DNA from: Amphibalanus amphitrite
Taxonomy: Eukaryota > Arthropoda > Thecostraca > Balanomorpha > Balanidae
Assembly: GCF_019059575.1 (NCBI RefSeq)
Contig: NW_024882211.1
Span: forward strand, 124,001-188,000
DNA length: 64,000 bases
Direction of reading: 5' to 3'
The position numbers were made by a program, and so were the translations under genes. The notes beneath the pieces were generated by a model. That model did not search any database. It saw nothing but the letters and a program-made list of their open reading frames with translations, and was not told the DNA's origin. Numbering within the stretch: the first letter of the stretch is position 1; the number at the start of each line of letters is the position of its first letter. Positions 1,114 through 59,737 of the stretch are shown here, in pieces.

Positions 1114-1254
1114 ACATCGACGAGTGCGCCGAGCGTCTGGACAACTGCACTCGCGACCAGGGCCAGCTGTGCCAGAACACCGACGGCGGATTCAACTGTA
1201 TCGTCCGCTGCGAGCTCGGCTACCGCTTCTCCCCGGCCCGCGGAGGCTGCGCAG
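1114..1254 (+). CDS. cbEGF exon 1 of a fibulin-like matrix protein gene
   Basis: Encodes one complete calcium-binding EGF domain of 47 residues. It follows a CAG acceptor, starts in phase 1 (the preceding exon supplies G of the first Asp codon) and ends in phase 1 at GCAG|GTCTGT. Six cysteines are in the normal order, with the Ca2+ motif DIDEC at the start and CQNTDGGFNC carrying the Asn/aromatic signature of beta-hydroxylated cbEGF domains. Such domains work outside the cell as rigid, calcium-stabilised rods in fibulins and fibrillins; the fibulin call comes from the variable C4-C5 spacing shared by the later exons. No signal peptide or start codon is seen upstream, so earlier exons must lie outside the window. 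The donor is followed at once by a 20-bp minisatellite that repeats donor-like G|GTCTGTGG. Confidence 0.85.
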
Positions 1255-1855
1255 GTCTGTGGGAGGCCTCGCTGGTCTGTGGGAGGCCTCACTGGTCTGT
1301 GGAGGCCTCGCTGGTCTGTGGGAGGCCTTGCTGGTCTGTGGGAGACTTCACTGGTCTGTGGGAGGCCTCGCTGGTCTGTGGGAGGCCTCGCTGGTCTGTG
1401 GGAGGCCTCGCTGGTCTGTGGGAGGCCTCGCTGGTCTGTGGGGAGGCTGAGCAGGCCTGTGGGAGGCCTCGCTGGTCTGTGGGGGAGGCTGAACTGGTAT
1501 GTGGGAGGCCTCTCTGGTCTGTGGGGAGGCTGTGCAGGTCTGTGGGAGGCCTCACTGGTCTGTGGGGAGGCTGAGCAGGCCTGTGGGAGGCCTCACTGGT
1601 CTGTGGGGATGGGGAGGCTGTGCAGGTCTGTGAGAGGCCTCTCTGGTCTGCGGGGAGGCTGTGCAGGTCTGTGGGAGGCCTCTCTGGTCTGTGGGAGGTC
1701 ACGCCTCACCGGTCAGTGGGAGGCCGCCCTGGTCTGTGGGAGGTCACGCCTCACTGGTCTGTGGGAGACCTCACTGGTCTGTGGGGAGGCCTCACTGGTA
1801 TGTGGGGGAGGCTGCGCAGGTCTGTCGGGGAGGTTGTGCGGGTCTGTTTTTGGAA
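1255..1855. repeat. 20-bp GC-rich minisatellite starting at the exon 1 donor
   Basis: About 28 copies of CTGGTCTGTGGGAGGCCTCG with variants. The first unit overlaps the 5' splice site of the cbEGF exon, so many units repeat a donor-like G|GTCTGTGG. Open frames across the array in several phases are products of the repeat, not genes. Confidence 0.9.
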
Positions 1856-13769: not shown

Positions 13770-13887
13770 ACATTGATGAGTGCGCCGAGGGTGTCGGCAA
13801 CTGCACGGTGGCGACAACGTGCGTCAACACCGAAGGCAGCTACACGTGCCGACCCAACTGTCCCGTCGGTTACCGCGCCAGCCCCAG
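13770..13887 (+). CDS. cbEGF exon 2 of the fibulin-like gene
   Basis: Follows GTTTCACAG and starts in phase 1 with D-I-D-E-C. It encodes cysteines 1 to 5 of a cbEGF domain with the signature CVNTEGSYTC, and ends in phase 2 at GCCCCAG|GTGGGA. At 118 nt it is the only exon here, with its partner at 25592, that breaks the phase 1/phase 1 rule. The missing sixth cysteine is supplied by the start of the 25592 exon, giving ...RASP-S-GTC. The match of phase and cysteine count supports this donor. The last 41 bases plus the donor are copied about a dozen times in the following intron. Confidence 0.85.
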
Positions 13888-13920
13888 GTGGGAGCTGTTA
13901 CAGCTACTGCCGACCCAACT
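13850..13920. repeat. Start of the 61-bp array (overlaps exon 2)
   Basis: The first full unit (13850-13910) consists of the 3' end of the cbEGF exon plus 23 nt of intron. The second unit is broken after CGACCCAACT by the 6.8-kb transposon and resumes at 20754. The array therefore existed before the transposon arrived. Confidence 0.9.
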
Positions 13921-14364
13921 CAGTCCCACGCACAAGGGGGAAAAGCTCAAATTATTGAGCGCTCAAAATATTGAGCGTGTGACGTCAGAGGCTCCCATAG
14001 GCGTAATGCTGAGGGCTCAAAAAATTGAGCCGTTTCAGGAACACGTTTTGCAAAAGCAACTCGCAACACCTAGGGAGAAATGGCAACACCCTAGGAGAAT
14101 CACTAGTGATGCAAAACAGATTAGGCTTTCATATTTTTCACTGCTCAAGCTTCAATGATTGGGGGAACACCAATTTATAGGTCGAAATCGTACGGCATAC
14201 CAGGATGACTTAAAAACAGGCCAATATTTATGTCGAAATAAAAGTTATTTTTTGTCCAGTCACGTTTTTTACTAGGGTTCTGTTGGAAAGAGCATTTTTC
14301 ATACTACCCAAAATGATTGCGATTCAATTTCACATTACCCATATCGGAGAATATTGTATATTAA

Positions 14365-14519
14365 CACATGGTTTCCAGTGTGTAAATGGTTTTAACGCAC
14401 GACGTGGATGGATTGGAGCACGAGTGTGTTAATGCACGAGTGAAACGAGTGCATTAACGCACAAGTGCTCCATTCCATCCACGAGTGCGTTAAAACCATT
14501 TATGCACGGAAACCATGTG
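14365..14519. mobile_element. TTAA-flanked foldback MITE, 155 bp
   Basis: TTAA at 14361-14364 and 14520-14523. The arms start CACATGGTTTCC and fold over about 70 bases each around a short loop near 14445. It lies inside the 6.8-kb transposon. Confidence 0.75.
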
Positions 14520-14523
14520 TTAA

Positions 14524-16030
14524 ACTAATTAATACATGCTTAACGGTGCGAATTTAAATGAAAATTAAACCTAGTCCATGCCACTAAAAAGGGCCCTTTA
14601 TGGGAAATCTAAGAATAAAGTCAATGACCCTTCCGAAAAACTTCAGTCGAGAAAGTCATCACTGCACGCGCGTGCACCAATTTAAATTGGTGCACGGCTA
14701 CCTTCGAATTAACGCACGGTTAATCTCCAGTGAACGCACCGTAAAGTATGTATTAATTTTCATTTGGCGGCGCCGTTTGTTTATTTCGTCGCGACGTCTC
14801 CGGTCGCGTGGTTGTCGTCGTCCTTGTGTTGAGGGTAAGTTTTTATCGTTTTAGTTGTACTTAGATGTAAAAAGGTACACTGAAAAGTTTGAATATGCTG
14901 TGATTTTAAATTTGGAAACACGTAAACGTCAATCAATTCACGTTTTCCTCGATTTGCGTGCAGATAAGTAACTGTCGACGAAAGTGGCGCCATCCGATAT
15001 GATGTTTTGAAGGAAGGAGACACAACATATTTACGTGAAAATTTTTGTTTTTTAGTGGTCTAAGTGCTTCAAAGAGGCTGTGAATGTTTTCTTCACACAA
15101 TTTTTCATTAGTTATGATGAGGTAAAAGGTAGTTTCAGTCTTAACTTTCATATAAATGACATTAAAACATATGATAGTCCACTGCTATCAGTGATTGAGT
15201 ACCTTGATATTTGGCATTTCTTATTAATTTGAATGTATTCTCTATCCATATGTCCTGATAGTAAGTGACGATACTCTGCCAATATGTTTCCATAGTTTTC
15301 ACATTCATTTCCAGTCCTTTACATAACATCACAATTTATAATCAACAAAACTCAACTCCTTCATTACTTCACAACACTGACAGCATGACAGACTGACAGT
15401 CAACTATTGTGTGGGTGAATGCTGAAACAGGATAGCCACTTTGCTGACTGGCTCGCTCATATGAAATAAGATAAAAATGATCCTTTATATCATTTCCATC
15501 TGGAGGATCGGAGTCAACGGAAAAGGAAGGCCACTTTCAAGCCTCAAGGTCTAGGCCGCCAGACGCCAGTCGGCAGTCACCACCAAATTTATAATCAATT
15601 AATTCATTATTATACTTTGAGACCCTTAGGTCACTGGATCAGCATCTCATTTTCAGTTTCAATATAGTAAAGGTTTTTATTTGTATGATGTGAAATATTT
15701 TCCTGAATCAGAATTTAATTATCCCTAGGTACCTGGTAGAGGTTTTGGATTTAATGCTCATTGTTGGTGTGCAGTCAGGATTTTTTGACAGGTCCAGATA
15801 GGGAATCCTGAGCAATTTTATAGTAAAGTGGTCTCCTTATAATCACCACATATTTTATCAAAAGCATTTGCAGAATTCATTCAATGAAGAATTTTATCAA
15901 TGTTGCACCCATTTCTTAGACGACCTAGGCTGCATCTTTTTTTTAGTTCCTGTTGTATGACATATTTTCCGTTTTGTTCCACTGCATTAAAGAAAAAAAT
16001 CGTTTGAGATAACCAAACAGCTTTTCTTTT
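14524..16030. other. Interior of the 6.8-kb transposon, nothing identified
   Basis: AT-rich sequence. A small palindrome sits at about 14664-14697 (GCACCAATTTAAATTGGTGC). No convincing ORF, RNA gene or further inverted ends seen. Confidence 0.4.
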
Positions 16031-16038
16031 TCTGGCAG

Positions 16039-16513
16039 GTCTGCACAACCAAGCGGTCGCTGGCGAGGACGTCGGCCGTCTCTGTGGGTAAGGCCATCTG
16101 CTCAGCCTTTGTGGAGATCAGCAAGACGTCACTAGGATGAAGACTTCGCTGGAGCAGAAGCCGCTGACCCGTGTCCGATCGGGCAGGTCATGCTCGACGG
16201 CACGAGCCACAACTCGAACGACTCGGTGACATCAACAACATGGTGGAGCAGGTGAATGAGTTTGGCGACGTGTTGTGCGACTGCAAGAAGGGTTGTCTGC
16301 GTGTTCTGGCCGGCGGAGCGGCGACGCTGCGCAGTCTGTGCTGGCGGTGAGCAGCTGGCCGTGGTGACCGCGCGCGCCCACATGCGCCGACAACCTGTGC
16401 GGCTTCGACGGCCCGGGACAGCCCGATGCCGCCCACTATGCGACGCCGACCGCGCACTGTCCGCACGGCCACATGGAGGTGTGCCCGCGCCTTTTGCCCG
16501 CACGCCGCTACCT
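16039..16513 (+). other. GC-rich, cysteine-codon-rich block of unknown origin inside the transposon
   Basis: A TTTTTCTGGCAG acceptor-like site at 16030-16038 precedes sequence whose GC content jumps to exon-like levels up to the LINE insertion, continuing at 19594-19675. With the LINE removed, the + strand frame through 16500/19594 contains several Cys and His codons before a stop. No single long frame covers the block and I recognise no family. It could be decayed transposase exons or host sequence captured by the transposon. Confidence 0.35.
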
Positions 16514-19500
16514 GTTGTTGTTGTTGGTTTTCCCTCCATCCGCGGCAGAGCCGCGGTGTAGCTTCAGCTCTGGAGGGCCCTGAAGGCGGCCACCAGGGCC
16601 GCCACCGTGTCGCCGCGCCTGACCTCCTCCACCGTCGGCAGTATGTTGCCGACCGCCGGGATTCTGAGGCGAACCCCCATCAGTCCCGGGCAGGTCAGCA
16701 GGATGTGTCGAGGTGTGTCGGCTTGCTCGCCGCACAGCGGGTAACGAGCTGCAGGGCAGTCGAGGTTCCTGCACTGTGGGCAGTCCGCAGATGGGTTTCG
16801 TCCGATGGAATGGAGAAACTGCGCCGAGCCGCTCCAGCGCCCAGTGCGGATCTGGTGGACGTCTACTGCTGTCGTCCTGTCCATGTTGGTGAGAGGTGGT
16901 GGCCATCTTGCACCCATAAGCTCTCTGTACCACCCCGTTGCGGCTTTGCGGTCGGGGTCCGGGTATGTCGGCCTGTCCCTTGCGGCGCGGTCTCTGGCGG
17001 TGCGGACTGCCGCTCGGTAGATGGTGTCTACGTCGAGCATGACGTCTTCTTGTGCCAGCGTCGCAGCCTCGTTTGCCAGGGCGTCGGCGGACTCGTTCTC
17101 TGGGATCCCGCAGTGGGATGGAACCCACTGGAGGGTGACCGTTCGGTCTCCGGCGGTGAGCTCCAGTAGCTGCTTCCATATGGCAGCGCCTCTGGCCGAG
17201 CGCTGTGCCGACGGACCCTCTCTCAGCGCCGCTATCGCCGACAGCGAGTCGGTACATATAACGACTGGTTCTGGTGCGTCCCGCTGGTGTTCCAGGATGT
17301 GGTCCAGCGTCACCTGCAGGGCGACCATCTCCGCTCGAAAGCTGGAGCAGAGTGTGCCCGCTGGGACACGGAGCTCGGTGCGGCTGTCGTCAGCTCCGAC
17401 GATGAGGGCGCCAGCCCCCCCGCGGAGGATCCCGCCGCTCGACGAGCCGTCGGTCCACGCCCACGTCGCGCACTGCGTCATGGACGCCAGGTGATGGAGC
17501 GCTGCGTCTCTCTTCGTGGACCTCGCCGCACCGGCGGGCAGCGCGCCAATGCTCAGGTTGAAGGTGATCTTGCCGGTGGGCGTCCACGGTGGCGGTCGCT
17601 CTGGTAGTAGGGCCTCAACCGGCAGCTCGACCCGTAGCTCCCGCAGGGCCTCCCGGCCTACTTGGCGCCACCCCGTGACCAGCTTGAGGCGCTGAGGGGG
17701 GTCAGCCATGGCGACCGCTCGGAGGGGGTCCTCTGGCGGGAGCGCGGCAGCCTTCGCGAACATACGCGCCGCTAGCGCAGTACGTCGTGCCGCGACAGGC
17801 AGCATGCCAGCCTCGGCCGTCACACCGTGGTGTGGTGCGGAGTGTATGCAGCCCGTGACGATCCTCGCCACGGCGCGCATCTCCCGCTCCAGGATCTCGA
17901 TGTTGGACTTGGACACTGCCGGCAGCCAGGCAGCAGCCGCGTGCTCTATCGCGCCGCGCACGTAGCCGTTTGCGACGGCGCGCAGCTGCTGTTCTTGCAA
18001 CCCCCAGCTGCGGCCGGTGAGACGTCGGAGTTGGGCCGCTCGGGGCCGGACGCGCCGACGGAGACTTCTGCAGTGCGGGCCGAAGCTCAGCGTCCTGTCT
18101 AGCGTCACTCCCAGAAGTTTCAGCTCAGGTCCCCCTTCCACCAGTTGACCCGCCACGTGGATGTGACAGTCGACGGCGTCTCGGGGGTTCTGGGAGAGGA
18201 CGAGCAGCTGCGTCTTCTGACCCGCGACCTCCATCTTACTCCGGCGGGCCCACTTCACGAGCGTGTTGGCCGCCAGCTGCGCCCGGTCCCGGGCCACGGC
18301 GATGGAGTTGCCGGCGCAGAGCGTCGAGGTGTCATCGGCGAACATGAATGGGGTTGTGCCGGGCAGGGTCTTGAGCGTTGCTACGAGCGGCGCCGACCAT
18401 AACAGAAACAGGGTCGGAGAGAGGACACTGCCTTGCGGCAGGCCCGCCCTGTACACGCGCTCGCCACTCTTCGTGCCGTTGACTTCGACACAGGCCCTCC
18501 GGTCTCGAAGAAATGCCCACACCCAGGTGTTGTAGCAGGCCGGGATTCCCAACTCTGCAAGACGCGCCCTCAGAAGACGGTGGTCGACCCGGTCGTATGC
18601 GCGGGAGAAGTCGTATGCCACAAGGACATACTTCTGGGCTGCTTCTCCGTCCGGGACTTGACGTCTCGATGGCGGGCACGGCTTGAGCTGCCATCCATCT
18701 TGGACCTGCTGGGTTAGCCGGGCGACGACATCCTCGACGCCCCGCTTCTCGCGGAATCCGACTTGTTCAGGTGGGATCATGTTGCGTTCGGCGGCGAGGT
18801 GTGACAGACGGGTCGCGATCACCCGCTCGGCCAGCTTGGCTACGTGGGACGTCAGCGCGATGGGCCGGTAGCTCGCGATCTTCCTTGGGTCCTTTCCCAC
18901 CTTGGGAATGGGCACTATAACAGCGCGCCGCCATTCCCGCGGGACCACGCCGGACTGCCACGAGCTATTGATGAGGTGAAGGAGGACTTCGCGCGCTCTC
19001 GGGCCCAGGTGCTTGATGTGCTCATTACACAGGTCGTCTGGGCCTGGCGACTTCTTGAGTTGCGCCTGCGAGATCTGTCGCGTCAGTTCCTCCTCGGAGA
19101 ACGGTGAGCAGTAGCCGGACTTCCGCCCCCAGCACTCATGGCACGTCTTGACGTTGGACGCCTTCAGTCTGGTTTTGGTGTCGCGGTCCACCTTCCGGTC
19201 CCGCACCTGCTTCGATACGGTCGCATAGGTGCGGTTGAATGCGTTCGCCTTGTCCCGGTCCGACACGAGCGTCCGGTCGCCATCTTCCATCGACTCAGCG
19301 GCTCTGTGCTGGTCGTCGGAAGCACCCTCCCACATCTTCAACGTCTTGTGGACGCGGCCGAGGCTCTGATGTTTGTTGAGGGTGGTGGAGACATATTCTC
19401 TGAACTGTCTCTGGGAGACACGTCGTTCCACAGATGCTGCTCTGCGTTTTGCCTCCACCCAGCGTTCCTTGGCCGAACGGTCCCCGCTTCTCAGGTCCCG

Positions 19501-19580
19501 CCGCGCCGCGCGTCTGGGACGCGCGGCGCGGCGGGACCGCCATTCCCGCGACACTGCCTCCTGTCGTCGCGCCGTGTCGT
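16514..19580 (-). mobile_element. 5'-truncated non-LTR retrotransposon (LINE), 3067 bp
   Basis: A 13-bp direct repeat CACGCCGCTACCT (16501-16513 and 19581-19593) brackets the insertion. On the - strand its 3' end is a short (CAA)n-type tail (16514-16526 read in reverse) just after the stop codon. The 5' end lacks the endonuclease region, typical of incomplete reverse transcription. It sits inside the 6.8-kb TIR element. Confidence 0.85.
16564..19554 (-). CDS. LINE ORF2 fragment: reverse transcriptase plus RNase H
   Basis: 996 uninterrupted codons. The reverse transcriptase palm shows ASYRPIALTS (about 227-236), the first catalytic Asp in YDFSRAYDRVDH (about 314-325), GLPQGSVLSP (371-380) and the FADD box (405-408). 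A cellular-type RNase H follows: TDGSSSGG (Asp702), RAEM (Glu742), TDS (Asp769) and the ESADALANEA helix (Asp823). A C-terminal Cys/His finger (CPQC at about 925-928, then C941, H950, C955) resembles the zinc motif found at the end of many LINE ORF2 proteins. The enzyme would copy its own RNA at a nicked target. The upstream apurinic-type endonuclease is missing, so this copy is 5'-truncated and the ATG is arbitrary. RNase H places it among the I/Ingi/Loa/R1-like LINEs rather than CR1 or L1. The intact frame implies a recent insertion. Confidence 0.85.
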   Translation of the reverse strand: MSREWRSRRAARPRRAARRDLRSGDRSAKERWVEAKRRAASVERRVSQRQFREYVSTTLNKHQSLGRVHKTLKMWEGASDDQHRAAESMEDGDRTLVSDRDKANAFNRTYATVSKQVRDRKVDRDTKTRLKASNVKTCHECWGRKSGYCSPFSEEELTRQISQAQLKKSPGPDDLCNEHIKHLGPRAREVLLHLINSSWQSGVVPREWRRAVIVPIPKVGKDPRKIASYRPIALTSHVAKLAERVIATRLSHLAAERNMIPPEQVGFREKRGVEDVVARLTQQVQDGWQLKPCPPSRRQVPDGEAAQKYVLVAYDFSRAYDRVDHRLLRARLAELGIPACYNTWVWAFLRDRRACVEVNGTKSGERVYRAGLPQGSVLSPTLFLLWSAPLVATLKTLPGTTPFMFADDTSTLCAGNSIAVARDRAQLAANTLVKWARRSKMEVAGQKTQLLVLSQNPRDAVDCHIHVAGQLVEGGPELKLLGVTLDRTLSFGPHCRSLRRRVRPRAAQLRRLTGRSWGLQEQQLRAVANGYVRGAIEHAAAAWLPAVSKSNIEILEREMRAVARIVTGCIHSAPHHGVTAEAGMLPVAARRTALAARMFAKAAALPPEDPLRAVAMADPPQRLKLVTGWRQVGREALRELRVELPVEALLPERPPPWTPTGKITFNLSIGALPAGAARSTKRDAALHHLASMTQCATWAWTDGSSSGGILRGGAGALIVGADDSRTELRVPAGTLCSSFRAEMVALQVTLDHILEHQRDAPEPVVICTDSLSAIAALREGPSAQRSARGAAIWKQLLELTAGDRTVTLQWVPSHCGIPENESADALANEAATLAQEDVMLDVDTIYRAAVRTARDRAARDRPTYPDPDRKAATGWYRELMGARWPPPLTNMDRTTAVDVHQIRTGRWSGSAQFLHSIGRNPSADCPQCRNLDCPAARYPLCGEQADTPRHILLTCPGLMGVRLRIPAVGNILPTVEEVRRGDTVAALVAAFRALQS

Positions 19581-19675
19581 CACGCCGCTACCTCGCAGCT
19601 GGTCTGCAACCACGCCGTCGCCGCCTGTAGCCCGATAACAAAACGGCTGTCTGATAATGCCGCGTGTTCTTTGTG

Positions 19676-20380
19676 ATGTTGCTACTGTGATCGTTGCTAC
19701 TGCTGGTCTGAGACTCGATGTTTCCATTCGTCTTTTACATGTTAAGGATTTGATAATGATACGCTTAGTCCGAGCTTAGGTCGTTTATATCATTTGTTAT
19801 ATGGCATATTTTGGATCAAAGCAGTAAGACACTGCCTCCTGCTTTTGTGATGTATGCTGGCAAGACGCAGGTTCCGGTCGCAGGTCACCCGGACCCGGTT
19901 CCAATGTGGTCGGGCTGGCATGCGATAATGTGATGTTGTTTTGCTCGTCTCTGTGTTCCACACTTGATGATGTTTGTGAATCTAACCCACATTGTATAGT
20001 ATTTTTGTTTGTTTGCGGCCGATGGCCTTGTAAGTTGTAACCGTGGCAATACAGTTTTTCCTGCTATAATTCTCCAATATTCAAGGGTGGGTGGATATCT
20101 CTGTATTCACGTATTCCCTTCTCCCAGTACAGTCAGAGAATATCAATTACAGTATTCATACGGATTATACAAGCCTTGTATAATTATTTGAGGTGTGCCG
20201 AATCCGAAAGACCGATAAAACTACTAGCGGAAAATGTGACATGATGCCATGGGTTTGTGAAAAGTTTAGGTACCACGTAGCATTCAACTTCCTGCATTTC
20301 TGTTTCAACTCAGTTTAACGTATTTCAACGAACATAACATCAAAAATGGCAGCCAGTACCGGCTTCACCTGTCACGGAGA
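19676..20380. other. Right interior of the 6.8-kb transposon
   Basis: No ORF or RNA gene seen. From 20381 to the terminus the sequence becomes rich in CTCAAnnnnTTGAG palindromes, probably subterminal binding sites for a transposase. Confidence 0.45.
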
Positions 20381-20753
20381 ACGCTCAAAAAATTGAGTGT
20401 AGATGCTGGCCGGCACTCAATTTTTTGAGCGCCAGCTGACTGTCATCTGTCGTGGCGCTCAATTTATTGAGTATCGCGGTCCCGAACGACAAGTGGCGCT
20501 CAAAAAGTTGAGCGTCTTTAGGGCATTTTCTTTCCAAAAACACCGATATAAATTATCACGGCGAGTGTTCGAGAAGAAACCTTGTTGCTCTCTCTTGCCA
20601 TTGATACCTTATTTGGATACGATATTTGCCGTAGTGTGACGCTAAAGGCATTGTAAAATACCATCGTTTCGCCTATTCCTTCATAATGGGCCCGCTCAAT
20701 TTTTTGAGCGCTCAATTTTTTGAGCTTTTCCCCCTTGTGCGTGGGACTGAACT

Positions 20754-21462
20754 GTCCCGTCGGTTACCGCGCCAGCCCCAGGTGCGAGCTGTTACAGCTA
20801 CTGCCGACCCAACTGTCCCGTCGGTTACCGCGCCAGCCCCAGGTGGGAGCTGTTACAGCTACTGCCGACCCAACTGTCCCGTCGGTTACCGCGCCAGCCC
20901 CAGGTGCGAGCTGTTACAGCTACTGCCGACCCAACTGTCCCGTCGGTTACCGCGCCAGCCCCAGGTGCGAGCTGTTACAGCTACTGCCGACCCAACTGTC
21001 CCGTCGGTTACCGCGCCAGCCCCAGGTGCGAGCTGTTACAGCTACTGCCGACCCAACTGTCCCGTCGGTTACCGCGCCAGTCCCAGGTGGGAGCTGTTAC
21101 AGCTACTGCCGACCCAACTGTCCCGTCGGTTACCGCGCCAGTCCCAGGTAGGAGCTGTTATAGCTACTGCCGACCCAACTGTCCCGTCGGTTACCGCGCC
21201 AGCCCCAGGTGGGAGCTGTTACAGCTACTGCCGACCCAACTGTCCCGTCGGTTACCGCGCCAGCCCCAGGTGGGAGCTGTTACAGCTACTGCCGACCCAA
21301 CTGTCCCGTCGGTTACCGCGCCAGTCCCAGGTAGGAGCTGTTATAGCTACTGCCGACCCAACTGTCCCGTCGGTTACCGCGCGAGTCCCAGGTGGGAGCT
21401 GTTATAGCTACTGCCGACCCAACTGTCCCGTCGGTTACCGCGCGAGCCCCAGGTGGGAGAGC
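20754..21462. repeat. 61-bp minisatellite made from exon 2 and its 5' splice site
   Basis: About 11.5 units of 61 bp. Each unit contains TGCCGACCCAACTGTCCCGT... through GCCCCAG|GTGGGAGCTGTTACAG. The part from CTACTGCC to CCCCAG (45 nt) is nearly identical to the end of the exon at 13770-13887 apart from a 3-nt deletion (ACG). Units differ at a few positions (GTGGGA, GTGCGA or GTAGGA at the donor; GCCCC or GTCCC). The period is not a multiple of 3, so the long + strand open frame over it cycles through three phases. The last unit ends in GTGGGAGAGCTGC. Confidence 0.95.
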
Positions 21463-22386
21463 TGCTCAGCCGGCCATCCAGGCTCTTGGAACAATTTAAC
21501 ATTGAATCTGCTCCTTGTTTACAATGCTCGTCTTCAAATATGACATGGCCTGAAGCTTTTTTTTCACAGCAAACCACGCCCTTAGCCGGCGCTCTCTATT
21601 GGCATCTGAGGCTCCATGCAGGTTTTTTAGGGTCCCGTACCGATACCAAGTAGCGCATCCTCGGGCCTTTGCCGGCTTCTGTGGGTCTCATGCCGAGGGC
21701 CCGCCTGTGTAACCATGTTCATTGTTCATTACTACCCCATCCTCTACCTCTCCCTGTAGGGGGGCGTGGGGCAAAGCGGCCACCCGGGGCAAAGCGGCCA
21801 CCCATCGTTTTAGCCCTCCACAACTGGCGTCAGCTCCAATTTATGCTTTCCATTAATGCTTCTCTTCGCGGTCGTTCGAATGAGCCAGACCGGGGTTTCA
21901 GGCCCATCGCCATTGTTCTGTGAAATACGGAAAAGTATTCCTTGCCAGGTTACCAACTATTTTTACAATTTTTAAATGTTATTTTATTCCATGACCGTTT
22001 GGAATTTTGATAAGCATTCTTGTCCATGCATTGCTTGATTATCGTACATGCCTTCTACCAATTCTAATGTTGTTTACCCACTGATAGCTGAGCTGGAATA
22101 TTATTGTCTCGGACGGTATGCGCGGGGCTAAGTGGCCGGGGCAAAGTGGCCAGCCCCCAATTGGCCATAAGTTGTTTCCATCTGGATAAGAAACATCATT
22201 TATATTCAAATGTGTCGTCATGCACTCATCATGGCCACTTTTCGGTTACATGAGTTACCAACAGGGGCGGCGCCACCGGGGGCAGGGGGGCAAACATATC
22301 TTTTTGGCACTCCTGTAATACTGAAGGAAGGCCCTTTTGCTTAAAATCATAGGCCCCTTTTTATCTGTGACTTTGCCACCCCAGAC
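21463..22386. other. Intron with GGGGCAAAGyGGCC words
   Basis: Two adjacent copies of GGGGCAAAGCGGCCACCC at 21769-21802 and two related copies (GGGGCTAAGTGGCC, GGGGCAAAGTGGCC) at 22126-22152, all in the same orientation. They may mark an old element. At 22262 a CAGGGGCGGCGCCACCGGGG end resembles the hAT terminus at 37933. No gene. Confidence 0.4.
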
Positions 22387-22389
22387 ATA

Positions 22390-22559
22390 GGGTCTGTTCC
22401 AGTCGCACTTCCTAACGCCTCTAAACTCCTCCAAGAGCAAGATAGAGGAGGTTGGAGCAGGGCCCTCCTTGGCTTTGTAGGGGCTAGAGCTGCCACTGGA
22501 ACAGGGAAGCAATCTTGGAGGAGTTTAGAGGTGTTAGGAAGTGCGGCTGGAACAGACCC
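22390..22559. mobile_element. PIF/Harbinger-like (Tourist-type) MITE, 170 bp
   Basis: Flanked by ATA (22387-22389, 22560-22562). The ends are near-perfect inverted copies starting GGGTCTGTTCCAGYCGCACT and extending about 48 bases. GGGnCTGTT ends with a 3-bp duplication fit PIF/Harbinger. A second, end-eroded copy lies at 54104-54265. Confidence 0.75.
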
Positions 22560-22624
22560 ATAGCCTCGAGCGAGACGCACCAGCTCCTTTACAAATGGAG
22601 GGCCGTAATTCATATAGAAGGTTC

Positions 22625-23225
22625 CTTGTCAGAATTGGAGGTCCCATGTACAAAAAGGAGGGCCCCTAGACAAATAAGAGGCCCCTCGACAAATAGGAGG
22701 TCATCTGTACAAATAGTACACCCTTTGGACGATTAGGAGGCCCCTGTACAAATAAGAGGCCCTCTGGACAAACAAGAGGCCCCCTGGGCAAACAGGAGGC
22801 CCCCTGGGCAACTAAGAGGCCCCTGGACAAGTAAGAGGTCCCTGGACAAAAAGGAGGCGCGCTAGACAAATACGAGGTCCCCTGGACAAAGAGGAGGCCC
22901 CTAGACAAATAAAAGGCCCCTGCACAGTGCCCACATAGGAGGCCCCTAGGCCATTGCACAAATAGGAAGACCTTTGTAGAAAAAGTTGGCCCTCTGTACC
23001 AATAGGAGGTCCCTGACAAAAAGCAGGCCCCCTAGACAAATAGTAGGCCCCTGGACAATAAGCAGGCCTCTTGCACTTTGGAGGCACCCTGGGCAAATAG
23101 GAGGTCCTCTGTGAATATGGGAGCTTCCCTTTACCAAAAAAAGAAGTCCCTGGACAAGTAGAAGGCCCTTGAACAGAAAGGAGGCCTTCTGTACAGACAG
23201 CAGGCCCCCTAGACAAACAGCAGAT
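22625..23225. repeat. ~20-23-bp minisatellite (AGGAGGCCCCTGGACAAAT type)
   Basis: About 28 degenerate units built on AGGCCCCTGGACAAATAGG. In the - strand it translates as a repeating G-L-L-F-V-Q-G-P motif, and three - strand open frames over it are repeat products. Confidence 0.85.
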
Positions 23226-23454
23226 CTCCTTCTCCGTTTCCTTCGATGGCAGCTGCTTCAATCTCACCACTAGCGTCACTCCAGTGATCCAGGTCGTCTA
23301 ATGACGTCTCCTCTTCGCCGTTACTCGGTTGTTCCGCCATCTGAACATTGACCACCACTGCATTTCCCGAGTTTTGGGCATCATTGAACTTGTTGGTTCG
23401 ACGTCGACTCTTCGATCGGGTTCTAGAGCTGACATTTTCTGCACTTGTAGACAT
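23209..23454 (-). CDS. Short ORF with Ser/Asn/Glu-rich N-terminus, unknown
   Basis: 81 codons starting MSTSAENVSSRTRSKSRRR, then a Gln/Glu-rich stretch (EEETSLDDLDHWSDASGEIE). The composition looks like a real disordered N-terminus, such as those of retroelement Gag-like proteins, and the frame runs straight into the minisatellite to its left. No family recognised. It may be a first exon of a mobile-element protein whose rest was replaced by the repeat array. Confidence 0.3.
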   Translation of the reverse strand: MSTSAENVSSRTRSKSRRRTNKFNDAQNSGNAVVVNVQMAEQPSNGEEETSLDDLDHWSDASGEIEAAAIEGNGEGDLLFV

Positions 23455-23476
23455 TGTTTCTTAGTCACTTAGTTAA

Positions 23477-24516
23477 CCCTCGCCGGCCGAGGGGGGGGGG
23501 GGGGCGGTTGCCGTCCCCCGTAGGGTTTTTTTTTCGCGATAGCTCCGAACACGCTGGCGATAGAGAGCTGAAACTTGGCATACCTGACCTTTGATTCAAA
23601 CCGGATCTTTTGACACCAACGTCCAACCGCATTTTTGGTTCAGATCAGGTCACTGACCTATGACGTCATAAGTGAACCTCTGCACGGTCTTCAGATGTCG
23701 CAACTTCGCAACGCCCTCACTGCCAGAGGAGATGTCACAGGGAAATGAAACTTGCAGGATCTAGTATCCATTATGAGACTCACAACTTGTATATCTCGGA
23801 TTTTTCCTAAAGGTCATATGAGGTCAGGTCATTTTCGTGACCTCACCATTATAAGTCAATGGGGAAAAATGAAAACTGTTTTTCTGGCGCCGGGAACGAT
23901 CTATAATAACTATCTCAAGCACACAGAATCGTGATTTGATGCACTCCTTGCAAGGTTAGATGCGTCACTTTTGCAATGTTGACTTTGCGTGACGTCATTT
24001 ATGACGTCATCAAGGTCATATTAGTTTTTCGTCAATAACTCTTGATCAAACTGAGCTAGTGAATCGGGAAAGCCACCAATGGACTCATGAAGACCTGCCG
24101 AAGCGAATGATATGCGACATGACCTCTTTCGACCAACTTCGTGACCTGGGGGTGCTGACCTGACCTTGACCTGAGGTCAACACCCTAAGTTGACCTGACC
24201 CGAACAAAAAGTATATCATTCGACGCGCCTGAGCGAGGCGAACACGATGCTGCCAAAATCGCGGCTCTGCGGTCGTTTTTTGCGAAGTTATTCACCAAAA
24301 ATTGAACCGTACCTAGGGGCACTTGACCTGACCTCAGAGGTCACCGGTTGACCTAGGACCTTAAAATCGGGTACCAATCTCTGCGTCTCGTAACGGCGCA
24401 CACGCTCGTTTTTTCCGCGACGCGCTACCTCCACCAGGGGCGAAACGGCGAGGGGGGGTCGTACCCCCCCTCGGCCGGCGCGTAGGTATGTAGAAAACCA
24501 ATAGGTCCGGCGATGG
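23477..24516. mobile_element. TTAA-type AGGTCA-rich element, 1040 bp
   Basis: TTAA at 23473-23476 and 24517-24520. Ends read CCCTCGCCGG and its imperfect complement. Both ends have G-run/C-run hairpins (23490-23520; 24451-24472) and matching GGCCGAGG / CCTCGGCC. The interior holds TGACCT/AGGTCA clusters and is clearly related to 27700-28540. Confidence 0.75.
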
Positions 24517-24892
24517 TTAAGTCAGTTACTGGGAATGATTAGCTACTACGTTACTTTACGCTACTGACCTACTTTTGTCTATCGGTGGTTTAAAGCTCCC
24601 AGACTTACGTTATTTTTTTATCCCACTTTTGACACCAATTGTCACGAAAAACAGATTAGCATTTATTGCTTTCACATGGAAGAGTCATAGCAGCAAGATA
24701 ACCAGTAACCACACATAAACTAGTACGTAGCTGGTTCGCTTTGGGTTCGCTCCCAAATCCCCCTTTTTTCCGCCGCGTCGATTTACATTTAATAAATTAT
24801 GCGGCCGTCGCGAGAGAAAATCCCGCAGCACCTTTCGCGGCGGATATTTGCAACAATACTTTGCCGCTCCCGGCCAGGATGGGCGTAGCCCA

Positions 24893-25158
24893 TAGATATG
24901 TCAATCGGATAACAACTTTTTGGTATACCGATACCAAACCGATACCAACTTTGTATTTGGTATTTGAATCGTAATGTGTTTGGTATTTTGTTGGTATCAT
25001 GAACCCTCACTCATGTATAAGAGGCTAAGAAATCGGTAAAAAAAGTTAGTATTTCCCTCATTTTCCCAAGTCGGTTTGGTTTCGGTATTTCTTCGTGGGT
25101 TTGGCTGGTGTTTGGTTTGGTATCGGTATTCCGATTTTCCGTAATTGACATCACTAGA
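24893..25158. mobile_element. hAT-like MITE with GGTATnGATACC core
   Basis: Near-duplicated 8-mers GTAGCCCA (24885-24892) and CTAGCCCA (25159-25166). Ends read TAGATATGTCAAT and, inverted, TCTAGTGATGTCAAT. The interior is rich in GGTATCGGTA/TACCGATACC words. Confidence 0.5.
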
Positions 25159-25309
25159 CTAGCCCAGAAGAGAACAGTGATTCGGTTCATAGTGCTCTCA
25201 CAGTTTCTCCCCACTTAAAATGTTAGACGAGGCCGTGCTATTCAACATTCATTACCGTATGCCCAAATCAGCATCTAGCAGTGGACGCGGGATTTCTTGA
25301 CTGATATCT

Positions 25310-25585
25310 GACCCGCTCTGTCTCTAACCGCTCTGTCTGACCCGCTCTGTCTTATGTCTGACCGCTCTGTCTCTAACCGCTCTAACCGCTCTGTCTCTAA
25401 CCGCCCGGCCCGCTCTGGTCTCTGACTGATGTCGGACCCCCGCTCTGTCTGATGTCTGACCCGCTCCGTCTGACCCGCTCTATATGACCAGCTTTGTCTC
25501 TAACCGCTCTGTCTGACCCGCTCTGTCTGATGTCTGACCCGCTCTGTCTGACCAGCTCTGTTCTCTAACTGATGTCTGACCCGCC
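25310..25585. repeat. Degenerate CTCTGTCTGACCCG repeat before exon 3
   Basis: Irregular copies of CGCTCTGTCTGACCCG and CTCTAACCG units, providing a pyrimidine-rich run into the acceptor at 25589-25591. Confidence 0.8.
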
Positions 25586-25591
25586 TCCCAG

Positions 25592-25746
25592 CGGCACCTG
25601 TAACGACATTGACGAGTGCGCCGAGGGCACTGCCGACTGTGGCCGTGGTCAGGCCTGTCGGAATCAGCCGGGCGCTTTTAGCTGCGTGACAAACACCACT
25701 TGTCCGGAAGGGTTCGAGTACTCGAAAGACGGCGCCGACTGTCGGG
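25592..25746 (+). CDS. cbEGF exon 3 of the fibulin-like gene
   Basis: Follows CTCCCAG. The first base completes a split Ser codon from the 13770-13887 exon (phase 2), and G-T-C then supplies that domain's sixth cysteine before N-DIDEC starts a new complete domain. Six cysteines with CRNQPGAFSC and the longer C4-C5 loop VTNTTC typical of fibulin cbEGFs. Ends TGTCGGG|GTGAGT in phase 1. The 155 nt plus the 118 nt of the preceding exon make 91 codons, so the frame is kept. The 48-bp minisatellite starts one base after the donor. Confidence 0.85.
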
Positions 25747-26251
25747 GTGAGTGTCACCGCTGTCAATATCAGTATCAGTGTCAGTGTCACTGCTGTCAGT
25801 GTCACTACTGTCAATATCAGTATCAGTGTCAGTGCCACCGCTGTCAGTGTCTGTGTCACCGCTGTCAGTGTCACTGCTGTCAATATCAGTATCAGTGTCA
25901 GTGCCACCGCTGTCAGTGTCACTGCTGTCAATATCAGTATCAGTGTCAGTGCCACCGCTGTCAGTGTCACTGCTGTCAATATCAGTATCAGTGTCAGTGC
26001 CACCGCTGTCAGTGTCACTGCTGTCAATATCAGTGTCAGTGTCAGTGTCACCGCTGTCAGTGTCAGTGTCACCGCTGTCAGTGTCAGTGTTACGGCTGTC
26101 AGTGTCACTGCTGTCAATATCAGTCAGTCTCAGTGTCAGTGCCAGTGCCACCGCTGTCAGTGTCACTGCTGTCAATATCAGTATCAGTGTCAGTGTCACC
26201 GCTGTCAGTGTCACTGCTGTCAATATCAGTATCAGTGTCAGTGTCACCGCT
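25747..26251. repeat. 48-bp higher-order CAGTGT/CAATAT minisatellite starting at the exon 3 donor
   Basis: Composite array built from GTCAGTGTCA, CCGCTGTCAG and CAATATCAGTATCAG blocks, about 48 bp per larger unit. It is open in several frames on both strands because it lacks stop words. The array is split by the element at 26252-29017 and resumes at 29018-29085. Confidence 0.9.
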
Positions 26252-29017
26252 GGGGCATTCCACGATAGATCGTACCACTTTTTTCCAATTTGACACCCTC
26301 ATCTCTCGGAATTTGACGAGAATTGGTCTCAGGGGTAATCAGGGGCTCTGAATCCACCTGTAACAATTTCAGGCTTATCAGATAAGTATTTTTTGAGTTA
26401 TGGTGTATAACATTTTTTGGATCTTGCTTTGCAGCGCTAAGTTTGGCGGGCTGTAACTCTAAGACGGATTATTTAAATGCCAAATGTCATATAACATTGA
26501 ACTTGCAATGAAACAGAGATTAACACGCGCAGTGGAAGGGTTGCGAGTACTACGCCCAGTGGAAGGGGGGGGGGGCGGATGTCGCCCCCCCCCTAAGATC
26601 TCAGCTCCCACTGGAGCTAGAAAAACGAAATTTGGAGGGTAGGTGAGGGCCATGGGGAACTCTGTTGTGTGTGAATTTCATGACCCTAGGTCAATATCTT
26701 CAAGGTCAAATGAGGTCAAATGTGGTCAAATCTGCCATATTTGAGACTTTTTTGCGTTTACACGCCGATAACTCAAAAAGTTACCGGCCGATTTTCTTTT
26801 TTCTTTCACTATACGAAAGATCAAACATTTGTGAGTATGTATGGTGAATTTCTAGTTAATCCAACAATAAATATGGCAGTTAAAAGCCTGGTAAGGGTAA
26901 GATGTCGCCGGCTGAAGCGGGATCGGCCGACGCGGGAAACGCGGCATTCACAATTTTGTGTTTACACACTCATAACTCAAGTTGTTACCGGCCGATTTTC
27001 AAAATTCTTTGACCATATGATTGCCTGTACATTTCTCAGTCTTCTCACCAAATTTGACGCGAATCTAATGTAATCAGCGGTAAGGAGCGCGATGTAAAGA
27101 CGGAACCGTCCCGCCCCGGCACAGTCTACAATTCAGGCGGCGCGTAACGGCTAGCGCCGGCCGCCGCGCCGCCGCGCCGCCGCCGCGGCAGGATGTTTGA
27201 CTTTACACCGCTATTACTAGAAAAGTTGTGAACCGATTTTCTTATTTCTGGCACGGTAAGATCCGCAATTCAATTCTGGACAGGTAGCCAAAACTTCACA
27301 TTAATATTATGTTTGCAGCGCGAGTTATTGGCGAAAAACAGGAGGGGTGGGCGAAATCCGCCCCCCCCCCCCTTCCACTGCGCGTGTTAATATGTATTTT
27401 TGAAAATTTCGAAAAATACGCTATTTTGATATATGACATATCGAGTTTTCTTTCATTTGTATTTTTTGGACTTTGGGACCAAATTTTTTTGAATTTTTAT
27501 TTCTTTAAAAAAATATTTGGCTCATTGTTAAGAAGTATGCAAAAAATTAGGAAGGTGTTCTTTCTATAAATGTATTTATTTTACGTCATGATAACGGTTT
27601 CGAATAGTGATTTCGGGAGGGGAGCTTACAAATGGCGTGGTAAAGCTGCCTAGTGACATCACGGGTTACTGAAATTTCAATTCAAGTCTGAGTCATCTGA
27701 AAAAAGTGAAAAGAGGGTTCATTCAACCCTCTTTCCTGTAAGCGCGAGGGTGAAAAAGGCTGTTTGGTTCTGACATTGTTTTGGACGCCAATGACCATAG
27801 CTGTCCGAGATGAAAGTTACAGGACGCATACATGGTGTCCTCCAGAGGTCTCACAACTTGTATATCTGGGAATTTTTCAAGGTTACATGAGGCCAGGTCG
27901 GTCACGTGACATCACTGTTATAAATCAATGGGGAAATATAAAAACTGTTATTTTGGCGCCGAGAATGATCTAAAACTATCCCACGTACATGGTATCGTGA
28001 TTTCATGCACTCCTTGCAAAGTCCAATGCTTTACTTTTGCATTGTAAACCTTGCGTGACGTCATTTATGACGTCACTAGGGTCGTACGAGTTTTTCGTCA
28101 ATAACTCCCGATCAAATCGAGCTAGAGAGTCGGGAAAGCCACCAATGGACTCGGGAAGACCTTCCGAATCGAATGATATGCCATATGATACCCTTTACCC
28201 AGCTTCGTGACCTGAGGGGCTCTGACCTGACCTTGACCCGAGGTCAACTACTTAAGTTGACCTCACCCTAGCAAAAAGTATACCATTCGATGCACCTGAG
28301 CTAGGCGAACACAATGATGCCAAAATCGCGGCTCTGCGGCCATTTTTTGCGAAGTTATTTACTAAAAACCGAACCCGTAACTTCAGTCACGTGACCTGAC
28401 CTCAGACTCTACCGGTTAACCTGAGACCTTAAAATCGGGTACCAATCGCTGCGACTTGTAACGGCACACACGCTCGTTTTTTCCGCGAGGCTCTAGCTCT
28501 ATTAGAAGCGAAACGGCGTGCTGGGGTCGTATCAACCCCTCCGAAACCCATTTTGTTTGCGGGAAAATGAGGAACTTATAGAAAGAACACCTTTCTAATT
28601 TTTTGCATGTCGATTTGCAATGACATGAAGATTATTTCGAAAAAATAAAAATGTGAAAAATTTTGGTCCCAAAAGTCATTAGAGGCAAATGAAAAAAGAT
28701 TAAGGTTTTTGCTCAACAATGAAATTTTTTCTTTGGAATTTTTAAATAGTAATATTAATTTTTGATTCATTGCAAGCTTAGTGTTGTTTACTTTTTGTTG
28801 GTTGCTTAACCTGTTCTTGAGTTATAGGCCATCAAACTCACCGTTACATACCGAAGTTAAAAAAATGTAATGCCATATAACTCAAAAAGTTTTGTTCTGA
28901 GAAGTCTGATATTTTGCCAGGCGTCTTTGGGGCCTATGATTACCCCTAGGACCGATTTTCATTAAAATCTGAGAGATGAGGGTGACGGGCCTGGTACGAT
29001 CTATCGTGGAATGCCCC
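26252..29017. mobile_element. 2.8-kb foldback DNA element with long terminal inverted repeats
   Basis: Direct repeat CGCT (26248-26251, 29018-29021). Outer 26 bases are perfect inverted copies beginning GGGGCATTCCACGATAGATC. Imperfect arms extend about 450 bp once a nested element is discounted: 26252-26519 plus 27391-27570 pairs with 28566-29017, for example GCAAAAAATTAGGAAGGTGT against its complement. No transposase. The centre (27590-28550) resembles the AGGTCA-rich element at 23477-24516. Confidence 0.8.
26524..27386. mobile_element. TTAA-type element nested in the foldback element, 863 bp
   Basis: TTAA at 26520-26523 and 27387-27390. Ends read CACGCGCAGTGGAAGGG in inverted orientation, each followed by a G-run/C-run hairpin (26566-26592; 27358-27372). 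The interior repeats ACACnCnnATAACTCAAnnnGTTACCGG and has a few AGGTCA words. Confidence 0.75.
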
Positions 29018-29168: not shown

Positions 29169-29318
29169 ATGTTGATGAGTGCGTGGCGGGGACCGACGGT
29201 TGTGACCCGCGCTCGACAACCTGCTCCAACACTGAGGGCGGCTTCCTCTGCGTGCCGCTGCCGGCCAGCCGCTGCCAGCCTGGCTACAGGTTCAATGACA
29301 TCCTACAGCAGTGTGCTG
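29169..29318 (+). CDS. cbEGF exon 4 of the fibulin-like gene
   Basis: Follows TGCCGACAG. Phase 1 at both ends, 50 codons: DVDEC, then CSNTEGGFLC, a C4-C5 segment VPLPASRC and a final QQCAG. Six cysteines, complete domain. Donor GCTG|GTATGT. Confidence 0.88.
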
Positions 29319-31888: not shown

Positions 31889-32041
31889 ACATCGACGAGT
31901 GCGAGGAGGGCACAGCCAACTGCCAGCCGGCGGCCGAGTACTGCGCCAACACGGCCGGTGGCTTCACGTGTCAGCGCCGACAGGATGGCGTGCAGTGTGC
32001 CACCGGCTTCCGGCTCAACGCCACCTCCGGCGTCTGCGACG
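31889..32041 (+). CDS. cbEGF exon 5 of the fibulin-like gene
   Basis: Follows CTCTCAG. 51 codons, phase 1 at both ends. DIDEC, CANTAGGFTC, a long C4-C5 loop (QRRQDGVQC) and C6 in GVCDG. Six cysteines. Donor GACG|GTGGGA, followed within ten bases by (CA)n and related repeats. Confidence 0.88.
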
Positions 32042-32677: not shown

Positions 32678-32983
32678 ACATTGACGAGTGCGCCGACGGC
32701 GTGCACTCGTGCCGGCGCCCGCTGCACTGCGTCAACATCCGCGGCAGCTTCACGTGCACGCTGGCGGCCGCCGGGGACCGGTGCGCGGCCGGCAGCCGGC
32801 TGCTCGACGGACGCTGCGTCGACGTCGACGAGTGCCGCGAGGGCAGCCACCTCTGTGACCGGGCCACCGAGCGCTGCGTCAACGAGCGCGGCGGCTACCG
32901 GTGTGCGTCGGCGGCCGGCCCGGCGCCGGCCGCCGACTGCCCGCCGGGATTCCGGCGGTCGGCGCCGCTGGGCCGCTGCGTCG
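32678..32983 (+). CDS. cbEGF exon 6 (two EGF domains) of the fibulin-like gene
   Basis: Follows CCGGCAG. 102 codons, phase 1 at both ends, encoding two complete cbEGF domains in one exon. Domain one runs DIDEC...CVNIRGSFTC...GRC, and domain two DVDEC...CVNERGGYRC...GRCVG. Twelve cysteines in register. The second has an Ala/Pro-rich C4-C5 loop (SAAGPAPAADC). Very GC-rich. Double-domain exons suggest loss of an ancestral intron. Donor GTCG|GTACGT. Confidence 0.88.
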
Positions 32984-46863: not shown

Positions 46864-47223
46864 TGTTACTGATTTAGGCGCCTCTTTCGGGAATGATTGG
46901 TGATGCGGACGAATAGAGGTCGCCTCGATCGGTGCTGACCGTTCGGCCAAGTCGGTGCTGCCGAGAGACGGCGCCTGGCGTCGGATTGGTCGCCTCCGGC
47001 GGTCAGCTGACCGAGAGCCGGGGGCGAGCGGCGGCCCGAAAGTTCGGGAATTGTGTCTGATGTGTGGTTGTTGCGTGATGGTTGCGGCGGTGTGCCGTGA
47101 TTTTGCTGGTTTTGAGGGTTCTGGCCGGTGGACATTGGAGTTGTGATGTTTCAGTTTTGTCCATTACGATATAAACGGTCTGCAAGAATCCGAGCTGAGT
47201 TTTTGGTGCTGAGTTCCGTGACA
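46864..47223 (+). repeat. 5' LTR of the BEL/Pao element
   Basis: 360 bp, TG...CA ends, no difference seen from the 3' LTR at 52991-53350. It should carry the element promoter; no TATA box is obvious. Confidence 0.93.
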
Positions 47224-47504
47224 TTTTGGTGCCTCAAACGCGGGACGGAGCCTTTGGATGTGCAGTAAGTGCAAGCCGGTAACAGCCAGTTGAGATGGGG
47301 TGCTGTGAGCTTGCTTTGTTTTGCACCAGGCTGATGGTGATTGACTTTGGTCAAGTGAGTACTGGACCTTACTCTGATGAGTTTGAGTTTTGAGCTCTCA
47401 GTTGTTTGGCTCTGTGCCAAGAAGAGTTTCAAGATCTGTTGATTTTTCTTTTGCTGTTACTGTGGACCATTTGCTTTAATTCTTGCTGTTTTCACGCCTA
47501 AGCC

Positions 47505-59290: not shown

Positions 59291-59492
59291 CGCAAGACCA
59301 TATTGACGAAAATCGGCGCTTGAGCTGAAATGTGTTTTGTAAAAATTTGAAGCCAATTGGACGAATATTGAAGAAACTATTGCCGAAAAACAGGGCCTCA
59401 TAGGGTCTGAAATCCATAGTGGAAGGAAGGTTGTGAGAGGCTAGAACCCCTGAAACACCCACTGTGCACGGTGTCACCACTGTGTCACCACA

Positions 59493-59606
59493 GTGTCTGT
59501 GTCACCCCGTGTCCATTTTACCACTGTGTCTGACCGCAGATGTGAACGAGTGTCTGTGTCACCCCGTGTCCATTTTACCACTGTGTCTGACCGCAGATGT
59601 GAACGA
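59493..59606. repeat. 57-bp tandem duplication of the exon 8 acceptor
   Basis: 59493-59549 and 59550-59606 are identical. Each contains TGACCGCAG and the first ten bases of exon 8 (ATGTGAACGA...). Both copies can act as a 3' splice site, and the spacing of 57 keeps the frame. Confidence 0.92.
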
Positions 59607-59737
59607 GTGCCAGCTGGACATCCACAGCTGCGTGGACAACCAGCGGTGCGACAACACCATCGGCTCCTTCTCGTGTATCCGCACGGCCGGCTGTGGCACC
59701 GGCTACACGCTCAACTCGCAGCTGGGCATCTGCGAGG
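59597..59737 (+). CDS. cbEGF exon 8 of the fibulin-like gene
   Basis: Follows CTGACCGCAG. 47 codons, phase 1 at both ends. DVNEC, CDNTIGSFSC, C4-C5 loop IRTAGC, C6 in GICEG. Six cysteines, donor GAGG|GTGCGT. Using the upstream duplicate acceptor (exon start 59540) would add 19 in-frame residues including three cysteines. The downstream choice is preferred because it gives a normal domain. Confidence 0.85.

What the first reader, a model, noticed from the sequence alone, without database searches (positions are those of the whole stretch)
13847..21462. A minisatellite made of exon 2's own end: about twelve candidate 45-nt in-frame mini-exons
Each 61-bp unit carries GTTACAG, then 45 nt (CTACTGCC... 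to ...CCCCAG), then GTGGGA. The 45-nt part is a copy of the exon 2 3' end (less 3 nt) bounded by acceptor-like and donor-like sites. Exon 2 ends in phase 2 and exon 3 starts in phase 2, and 45 is a multiple of 3, so any unit spliced in would keep the frame and add about 15 residues with two cysteines (S-Y-C-R-P-N-C-P-V-G-Y-R-A-S-P). The gap between neighbouring units is only 16 nt, so adjacent units could not both be used as ordinary exons, but single units or units further apart could. This is either a neutral expansion of an exon/intron junction or a source of isoforms that change EGF disulphide pairing.
Basis: partly seen in the sequence, partly recalled or inferred. Interest (0 to 1): 0.8.

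Follow-up and report, generated by a model that had tools for sequence, protein, structure and literature searches.

The report
Splice-junction minisatellite in an arthropod gene
The end of a small exon and the splice site behind it have been copied head-to-tail 12 times on one chromosome copy and 24 times on the other in an arthropod gene; the copies are most likely spliced out unused, but such repeats recur in this gene and may show how the edges of introns change.

Summary
The array is real: a 61-bp unit made of exon 2's last 45 nt (less ACG) plus 16 nt of intron. So the window has 11, not 12, complete acceptor-45 nt-donor units. The presumed other haplotype (contig C76, same assembly) has no transposon there and 24 extra units. 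Array donors score like real donors; array acceptors score like ordinary intronic AGs, so mini-exons are unlikely. Read-through is not conserved: on C76 it meets a stop and the last donor is out of frame. Most likely the direct splice 13887-25592 is used and the array is silent; no RNA was available. Such boundary repeats are described as 'mirages' in amphioxus, and similar ones are known in human genes. Here the host is an arthropod; the same gene has further junction-spanning arrays (exons 1 and 7, exons at C714:104855 and C714:197971), and a fibrillin-like gene has one. Length differs between haplotypes at 4 of 4 junction arrays compared.

The parts
13770..13887 (+). Exon 2 of a multi-EGF gene (predicted); its last 45-48 nt are the source of the repeat unit
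   Evidence: EGF_CA by Pfam on the joined exons
13888..13920 (+). First 33 nt of the array behind exon 2: donor GTGGGA, acceptor-like GTTACAG, start of the first extra unit, up to and including the target site AACT
13921..20749 (.). TIR transposon (TE1) inserted in the first extra unit; TSD AACT at 13917-13920 and 20750-20753; absent from the C76 array
14356..14753 (.). 398-bp insertion inside TE1, missing from 11 of 11 fetched copies of TE1
16514..19580 (-). Non-LTR type retrotransposon (RVT_1, RNase_H) inside TE1, flanked by the 13-bp duplication CACGCCGCTACCT (16501-16513, 19581-19593); missing from 11 of 11 fetched copies of TE1
20750..21459 (+). Main part of the 61-bp array: 12 donors, 11 complete acceptor-45 nt-donor units (starting 20798 to 21408)
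21453..21475 (+). Far edge of the array, where the unit turns into GTGGGAGAGCTGCTCAGCCGG, presumably the old single-copy continuation
   Evidence: same on C76; reading as old continuation is inference
25592..25746 (+). Exon 3 (predicted), with the acceptor expected to pair with 13887
1242..1847 (+). 20/41-bp array over exon 1's donor, 12 junction-spanning copies in the probe test
25750..26246 (+). 48-bp-type array behind exon 3's donor, continued at about 29022; split by a second transposon 26252-29017 with TSD CGCT
59492..59609 (+). 57-bp unit, 2.1 copies, over exon 7's acceptor: intron end plus exon start duplicated

Best explanation
It is a boundary minisatellite of the kind called 'mirage': a tandem duplication that took in the end of exon 2 and the start of the intron behind it, and then multiplied. 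Shown: the unit spans the boundary; two contigs that look like the two haplotypes carry 12 and 24 extra units; a transposon later split the shorter array. Inferred: the first duplication came from slippage or microhomology (CAGC lies at both edges of the duplicated segment), and unequal exchange changed the number and brought exon-like 64-nt units into the array. Inferred: the spliceosome joins the first donor (exon end 13887) to exon 3 (25592) and removes all between, so the array is silent in most mRNA. Some use of later donors is possible, most easily on the haplotype without the transposon.
For: Unit and coordinates. C76: same exon end, no transposon, 24 extra units, 21 of them with 45 nt, 2 with 48, 1 with 56. 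Array donors at the 98th-99th percentile of intronic GTs, real ones at the 95th-100th; array acceptors at the 48th-71st (recalled matrix). Junction-spanning copies at other boundaries of the gene and at a fibrillin-like gene's acceptor. Arrays within 60 nt of 9 of 16 exon boundaries in the window (mean 2.3 by chance, 81 of 20000 circular shifts) and of 5 of 12 placed boundaries of the gene outside it (background 0.12, binomial 0.0095). Exons 1-6 differ at 3 of 1023 nt between the contigs. In amphioxus such arrays are reported not to disturb splicing (passages of PMC3087553, and PMC3902484).
Against: No RNA. Under stricter array criteria the closeness to exons weakens: 7 of 16 (192 of 20000 shifts) and, within 30 nt, 5 of 16 (1412 of 20000). 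In other EGF genes 2 of 18 boundaries against 0.047 each is not significant (0.21). Later donors are as strong as the first, so the choice of the first rests on precedent. That C76 is an allele and not a recent duplicate is inferred from colinearity.
Confidence: 0.85

Rival explanations
1. Multiple alternative donors: splicing picks among the tandem donors and lengthens exon 2 by whole units, as the title of a paper on the human interferon-induced gene 6-16 describes.
For: All 12 later donors in the window score like exon 2's own. On C76 no transposon separates them from the exon; 8 of its 24 later donors keep frame and 5 of these lie before the first stop; on the window haplotype, transposon left out, 4 of 12 keep frame.
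Against: Most later donors shift the frame (16 of 24 on C76, 8 of 12 on the window haplotype). In the window the later donors lie 6.9 kb behind the exon, beyond a transposon. Offsets are not conserved between haplotypes.
Confidence: 0.1
2. Cassette mini-exons: single 45-nt (or 48-nt) units are spliced in and add about 15 residues with two cysteines, changing EGF pairing.
For: 11 complete units in the window and 23 of 24 on C76 keep frame. 3 of 4 variable sites in the 45-nt part are synonymous, which is too few to weigh.
Against: Array acceptors at the 48th-71st percentile, other AGs within 20 nt, no YTNAY site in the one stretch checked (by that rule exons 5, 6 and 8 have none either). Units are 16 nt apart, so neighbours cannot both be used.
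Confidence: 0.03
3. Assembly artefact: the array or its length is a product of misassembly.
For: Tandem arrays are hard to assemble and read depth could not be checked.
Against: Two contigs carry arrays with different unit variants and the same flanks. The transposon within the array has both ends and its duplication.
Confidence: 0.02

Closest known systems
Amphioxus 'mirages' (Adh3, globins BflGb6 and BflGb9, TnC, similar in PGBD5): passages of PMC3087553 and PMC3902484
   Same: Minisatellite-like tandem duplications that span an exon-intron boundary, at 5' or 3' ends of introns; many units hold AG/GT signals; unit number differs between haplotypes (6 and 3 in BflGb6)
   Different: Host is an arthropod here; several such arrays in one gene; one array split by a transposon; regular splicing was supported there by RT-PCR, here it is only predicted
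Variable internal tandem repeats at exon-intron boundaries of human paralogues in segmental duplications (passages of PMC2812944)
   Same: Minisatellites at exon-intron boundaries that change copy number and can alter gene structure
   Different: There new introns are supported by transcripts; here no transcript data, and two haplotypes of one gene are compared
Human interferon-induced gene 6-16 (IFI6) minisatellite with multiple splice donors, Nucleic Acids Res 1995 (only the reference title seen, in PMC2572611; the rest recalled)
   Same: A minisatellite that supplies many donors behind one exon
   Different: Short unit of about 12 nt as recalled; here 61 bp, with an acceptor-like site in each unit

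Membership tests
Mirage (boundary minisatellite, as described in amphioxus) | Tandem repeats whose unit spans a real exon-intron boundary | tested here: met
   unit is the end of exon 2 plus 16 nt of intron; the boundary itself is predicted, not shown by cDNA
Mirage (boundary minisatellite, as described in amphioxus) | AG/GT splice signals within units | tested here: met
   12 of 12 later donors intact in the window; on C76 one of 24 units has CCG|GT in place of CAG|GT
Mirage (boundary minisatellite, as described in amphioxus) | Length differs between haplotypes | tested here: met
   12 against 24 extra units; that C76 is the other haplotype is inferred
Mirage (boundary minisatellite, as described in amphioxus) | Regular splicing is not disturbed | not testable with these tools
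   no RNA data
Mirage (boundary minisatellite, as described in amphioxus) | Found in a cephalochordate (where it was described; not part of the definition) | tested here: not met
   150 of 150 scored candidates (of 705) match the RR cuticle family Chitin_bind_4, which by general knowledge marks an arthropod
Functional cassette mini-exons | Acceptor of the strength of real ones | tested here: not met
   48th-71st percentile against the 90th or above for 7 of 8 predicted real acceptors; the eighth (exon 1) is at the 61st
Functional cassette mini-exons | Transcripts that contain the unit | not testable with these tools
   no RNA data
Multiple-donor minisatellite (6-16 type) | Several tandem donors of good strength behind one exon | tested here: met
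   98th-99th percentile for 12 of 12
Multiple-donor minisatellite (6-16 type) | More than one donor used in transcripts | not testable with these tools
   no RNA data

The most novel reading that the evidence does not exclude
Boundary minisatellites are a recurrent process that remodels the introns of this arthropod gene: donor and acceptor regions are amplified at many exons, some introns come to consist largely of repeats (introns 3 and 5 on C76: 586 of 631 and 520 of 632 nt), and the phase-2 position of intron 2 is the outcome of one such event, in which the old exon end (TGC TCA G, now at the far side of the array) became intron.
Probability: 0.2. Interest if true: 0.75.

Novelty: new member of a known kind. 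Interest (0 to 1): 0.5.

Why it matters
It extends a little-known kind of sequence, repeats that span exon-intron boundaries, to an arthropod, with two haplotypes that differ twofold in unit number and by a transposon. That is a natural test of how the spliceosome chooses among many equal donors, and of whether tandem duplication shifts or creates introns. In the searches made (open-licence full text, titles and abstract starts of the papers listed, 15 of 75 listed) I saw no title reporting such arrays in an arthropod; this does not show that none exists.

Tried and rejected
Array as an in-frame coding extension of exon 2: open on the window haplotype with the transposon left out, but C76 has a stop 808 nt behind the exon and its last donor is out of frame. 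The gap 13.9-20.7 kb as array or original intron: it is a transposon. Selection on the 45-nt part: 3 of 4 variable sites synonymous among 31 units of 61 nt, too few. Folding as single-stranded DNA: one unit z -0.55, two units z -2.56, exon 7 unit z +0.33; not pursued. Transposase of TE1: no Pfam match in three plus-strand frames of a 0.6-kb part; the rest of TE1 was not searched. Kinase and trypsin family searches, meant for a wider survey of junctions, gave hit tables but no loci. Species: passages of PMC8416341 did not help; a barnacle is a guess from recalled assembly size. Passages of PMC4039745 (C. elegans) link a minisatellite with alternative splicing but not boundary duplication.

Rows dropped: 12 of 14 boundaries of the rest of the gene and 18 of 24 of other EGF genes could be placed, some acceptors of the latter 1-3 nt off, 26 of the 30 loci were examined. 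In one search the loosest count, 10 of 16 (40 of 20000 shifts), includes a false hit behind exon 2 (a transposon palindrome); I use 9 of 16.

Full report
What is there. The window holds exons of a multi-EGF gene on the plus strand. Eight exons were placed from the EGF pattern and splice sites (1114-1254, 13770-13887, 25592-25746, 29169-29318, 31889-32041, 32678-32983, 59597-59737, 62003-62197); all are predictions. Their joined product matches Pfam EGF_CA (E 1e-84, 8 stretches). Behind exon 2 begins a 61-bp minisatellite whose unit is exon 2's last 45 nt, less ACG, plus 16 nt of intron. At its far edge (21453) the unit turns into GTGGGAGAGCTGCTCAGCCGG, presumably the old single-copy continuation.

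The array is cut in its first extra unit by 13921-20749, a transposon with inverted ends starting CAGTCCCACGCAC, a 4-bp duplication AACT and subterminal GCTCAAAAAATTGAGC palindromes. Of 706 first-look candidates for its left part 40 were scored; the table lists 39 other copies at 97-99%. Of 11 copies fetched, 7 have both exact ends and these 7 show 4-bp duplications; 11 of 11 lack the 398-bp insertion and the 3-kb retrotransposon found in the window copy. So the window has 11 complete acceptor-45 nt-donor units; the twelfth is split.

The other haplotype. The window's genome is held (G000, 807,550,619 bases, 2644 contigs). Many EGF exons appear twice there with equal or similar scores on two contigs, as in an uncollapsed diploid assembly. 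Contig C76 follows the first 34 kb of the window in blocks of 96-99% identity, with gaps (intron 1 is 12.5 kb in the window and 22.5 kb on C76). On C76 exon 2 has the same end, no transposon follows, and there are 24 extra units: 21 with 45 nt, 2 with 48 nt, 1 with 56 nt. A second transposon (26252-29017, duplication CGCT), which splits the array behind exon 3, is also missing from C76; intron 3 there has 631 nt, 586 of them array, and intron 5 has 632, 520 of them array. Exons 1-6 differ at 3 of 1023 nt, two of which change a residue (V/A in exon 2, L/V in exon 4). That C76 is an allele is inferred; a recent duplicate is not formally excluded.

Could units be spliced in? With a recalled human-like matrix, the 12 later donors rank at the 98th-99th percentile of 3928 intronic GTs, and the 8 predicted real donors at the 95th-100th. 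The 12 array acceptors rank at the 48th-71st percentile of 3282 intronic AGs; 7 of 8 predicted real acceptors rank at the 90th or above, exon 1's at the 61st. No YTNAY site was found in the one array stretch checked, but exons 5, 6 and 8 have none by that rule either. Read-through is no better: exon 2's frame is open to the stop at 21541-21543 on the window haplotype with the transposon left out (12 x 61 = 732 nt), but on C76 a stop comes 808 nt behind exon 2 and the last donor lies at 1481 nt, out of frame; 8 of 24 later donors keep frame, 5 of them before the stop. The direct junction is the product that both haplotypes can make unchanged.

Not a single case. A probe of 20 exon and 20 intron nt was run at each of 16 boundaries with 5 shuffles each. 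Exon 1's donor: 16 hits, 12 in its array and 4 weaker ones elsewhere (shuffles 0-1). Exon 2's donor: 13, of which 12 in the array (shuffles 0-1). Exon 3's donor: 10, most reaching only 5 nt into the exon (shuffles 0). Exon 7's acceptor: one hit, perfect over 33 nt (shuffles 0-1 hits of at least 12 points). Exon 8's donor: 2 weak hits (shuffles 0). Elsewhere single weak hits or none. Outside the window the exon at C714:104855 has a 44-bp donor array and that at C714:197971 a 32-bp one; a fibrillin-like gene has a 53-bp acceptor array at C543:211978. Length differs in 4 of 4 junction arrays read on both contigs: exon 2 (12/24 extra units), exon 1 (606/586 nt by Tandem Repeats Finder), C714:104855 (4 donors against 3 on C76, counted from the printed sequence), C543:211978 (7 copies against 2 on C771, exon's own and degenerate ones counted). 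Exon 7 and C714:197971 were not compared.

Closeness of arrays to exon edges. In the window 9 of 16 boundaries have an array (period at least 9, score at least 60) within 60 nt; circular shifts give 2.3 on average and 81 of 20000 reach 9. Stricter settings are weaker: 7 of 16 (192 of 20000) at score 100, 5 of 16 (1412 of 20000) within 30 nt. Outside the window 5 of 12 placed boundaries of the same gene against a background of 0.12 (binomial 0.0095), and 2 of 18 in other EGF genes against 0.047 (0.21). So the effect is supported for this gene and not shown for the genome. Straddling alone would not be rare where arrays cover 12% of the sequence; that the unit derives from the boundary is what tells.

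What it is. Tandem repeats over exon-intron boundaries are called mirages in amphioxus, where unit number differs between haplotypes and RT-PCR suggests regular splicing (passages of PMC3087553; PMC3902484). The original Adh paper was not held. Variable minisatellites at such boundaries are also known in human paralogues (passages of PMC2812944). The anatomy here is the same. The host is an arthropod: 150 of 150 scored candidates, of 705, match the RR cuticle family. A barnacle is my guess from recalled assembly size; no call shows it.

History. CAGC lies at both edges of the duplicated segment (exon GGCAGCTACACG, old intron GCTCAGCCGG), which fits a microhomology or slippage start (inference). 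Exon-like 64-nt units within the C76 array fit exchange between exon end and array (inference). Intron 2 is the one phase-2 intron of the 7 in the window; the others are phase 1 (read). At the far edge of the array the frame of exon 2 reads CPVGYRASPRWES-TGC-TCA-G, with a cysteine 12 residues behind the fifth, the spacing of most EGF domains of this gene by my count, and with the TGC/TGT-NNN-G ending of the other exons. This may be the former exon end, with exon 3's 14-nt front extension now supplying the sixth cysteine. A cysteine codon at one given place by chance is about 1 in 32 (my estimate), so this is a lead, not a result.

Noticed in passing
window 21453-21475 and 25592-25605: Possible former end of exon 2 (TGC TCA G in phase 1) at the far edge of the array, and a 14-nt front extension of exon 3 that supplies the sixth cysteine; intron 2 is the only phase-2 intron of the 7 in the window.
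   Followed up: partly
window 13921-20749: High-copy TIR transposon family, 97-99% identical copies, 4-bp TSD, subterminal palindromes GCTCAAAAAATTGAGC; no Pfam match in the part searched.
   Followed up: partly
window 26252-29017: Second TIR transposon (ends GGGGCATTCCACGATAGATCGTACCA, TSD CGCT) inside the array behind exon 3, absent from contig C76.
   Followed up: partly
window 25307-25569 and L058 1269-1961: Arrays just upstream of acceptors are rich in CTGAC/CTAAC and pyrimidine motifs, or copy the intron end, as if the acceptor region were amplified without the exon.
   Followed up: no
L047 1232-1531 (C543) and L063 (C771): 53-bp repeat over an exon acceptor of a fibrillin-like gene, several copies on one contig and about two on the other.
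   Followed up: partly
window 47502-52672: BEL/Pao retrotransposon (DUF1759, Peptidase_A17, RVT_1, integrase parts by Pfam), with a 360-bp direct repeat, 100% identical, at 46864-47223 and 52991-53350.
   Followed up: no
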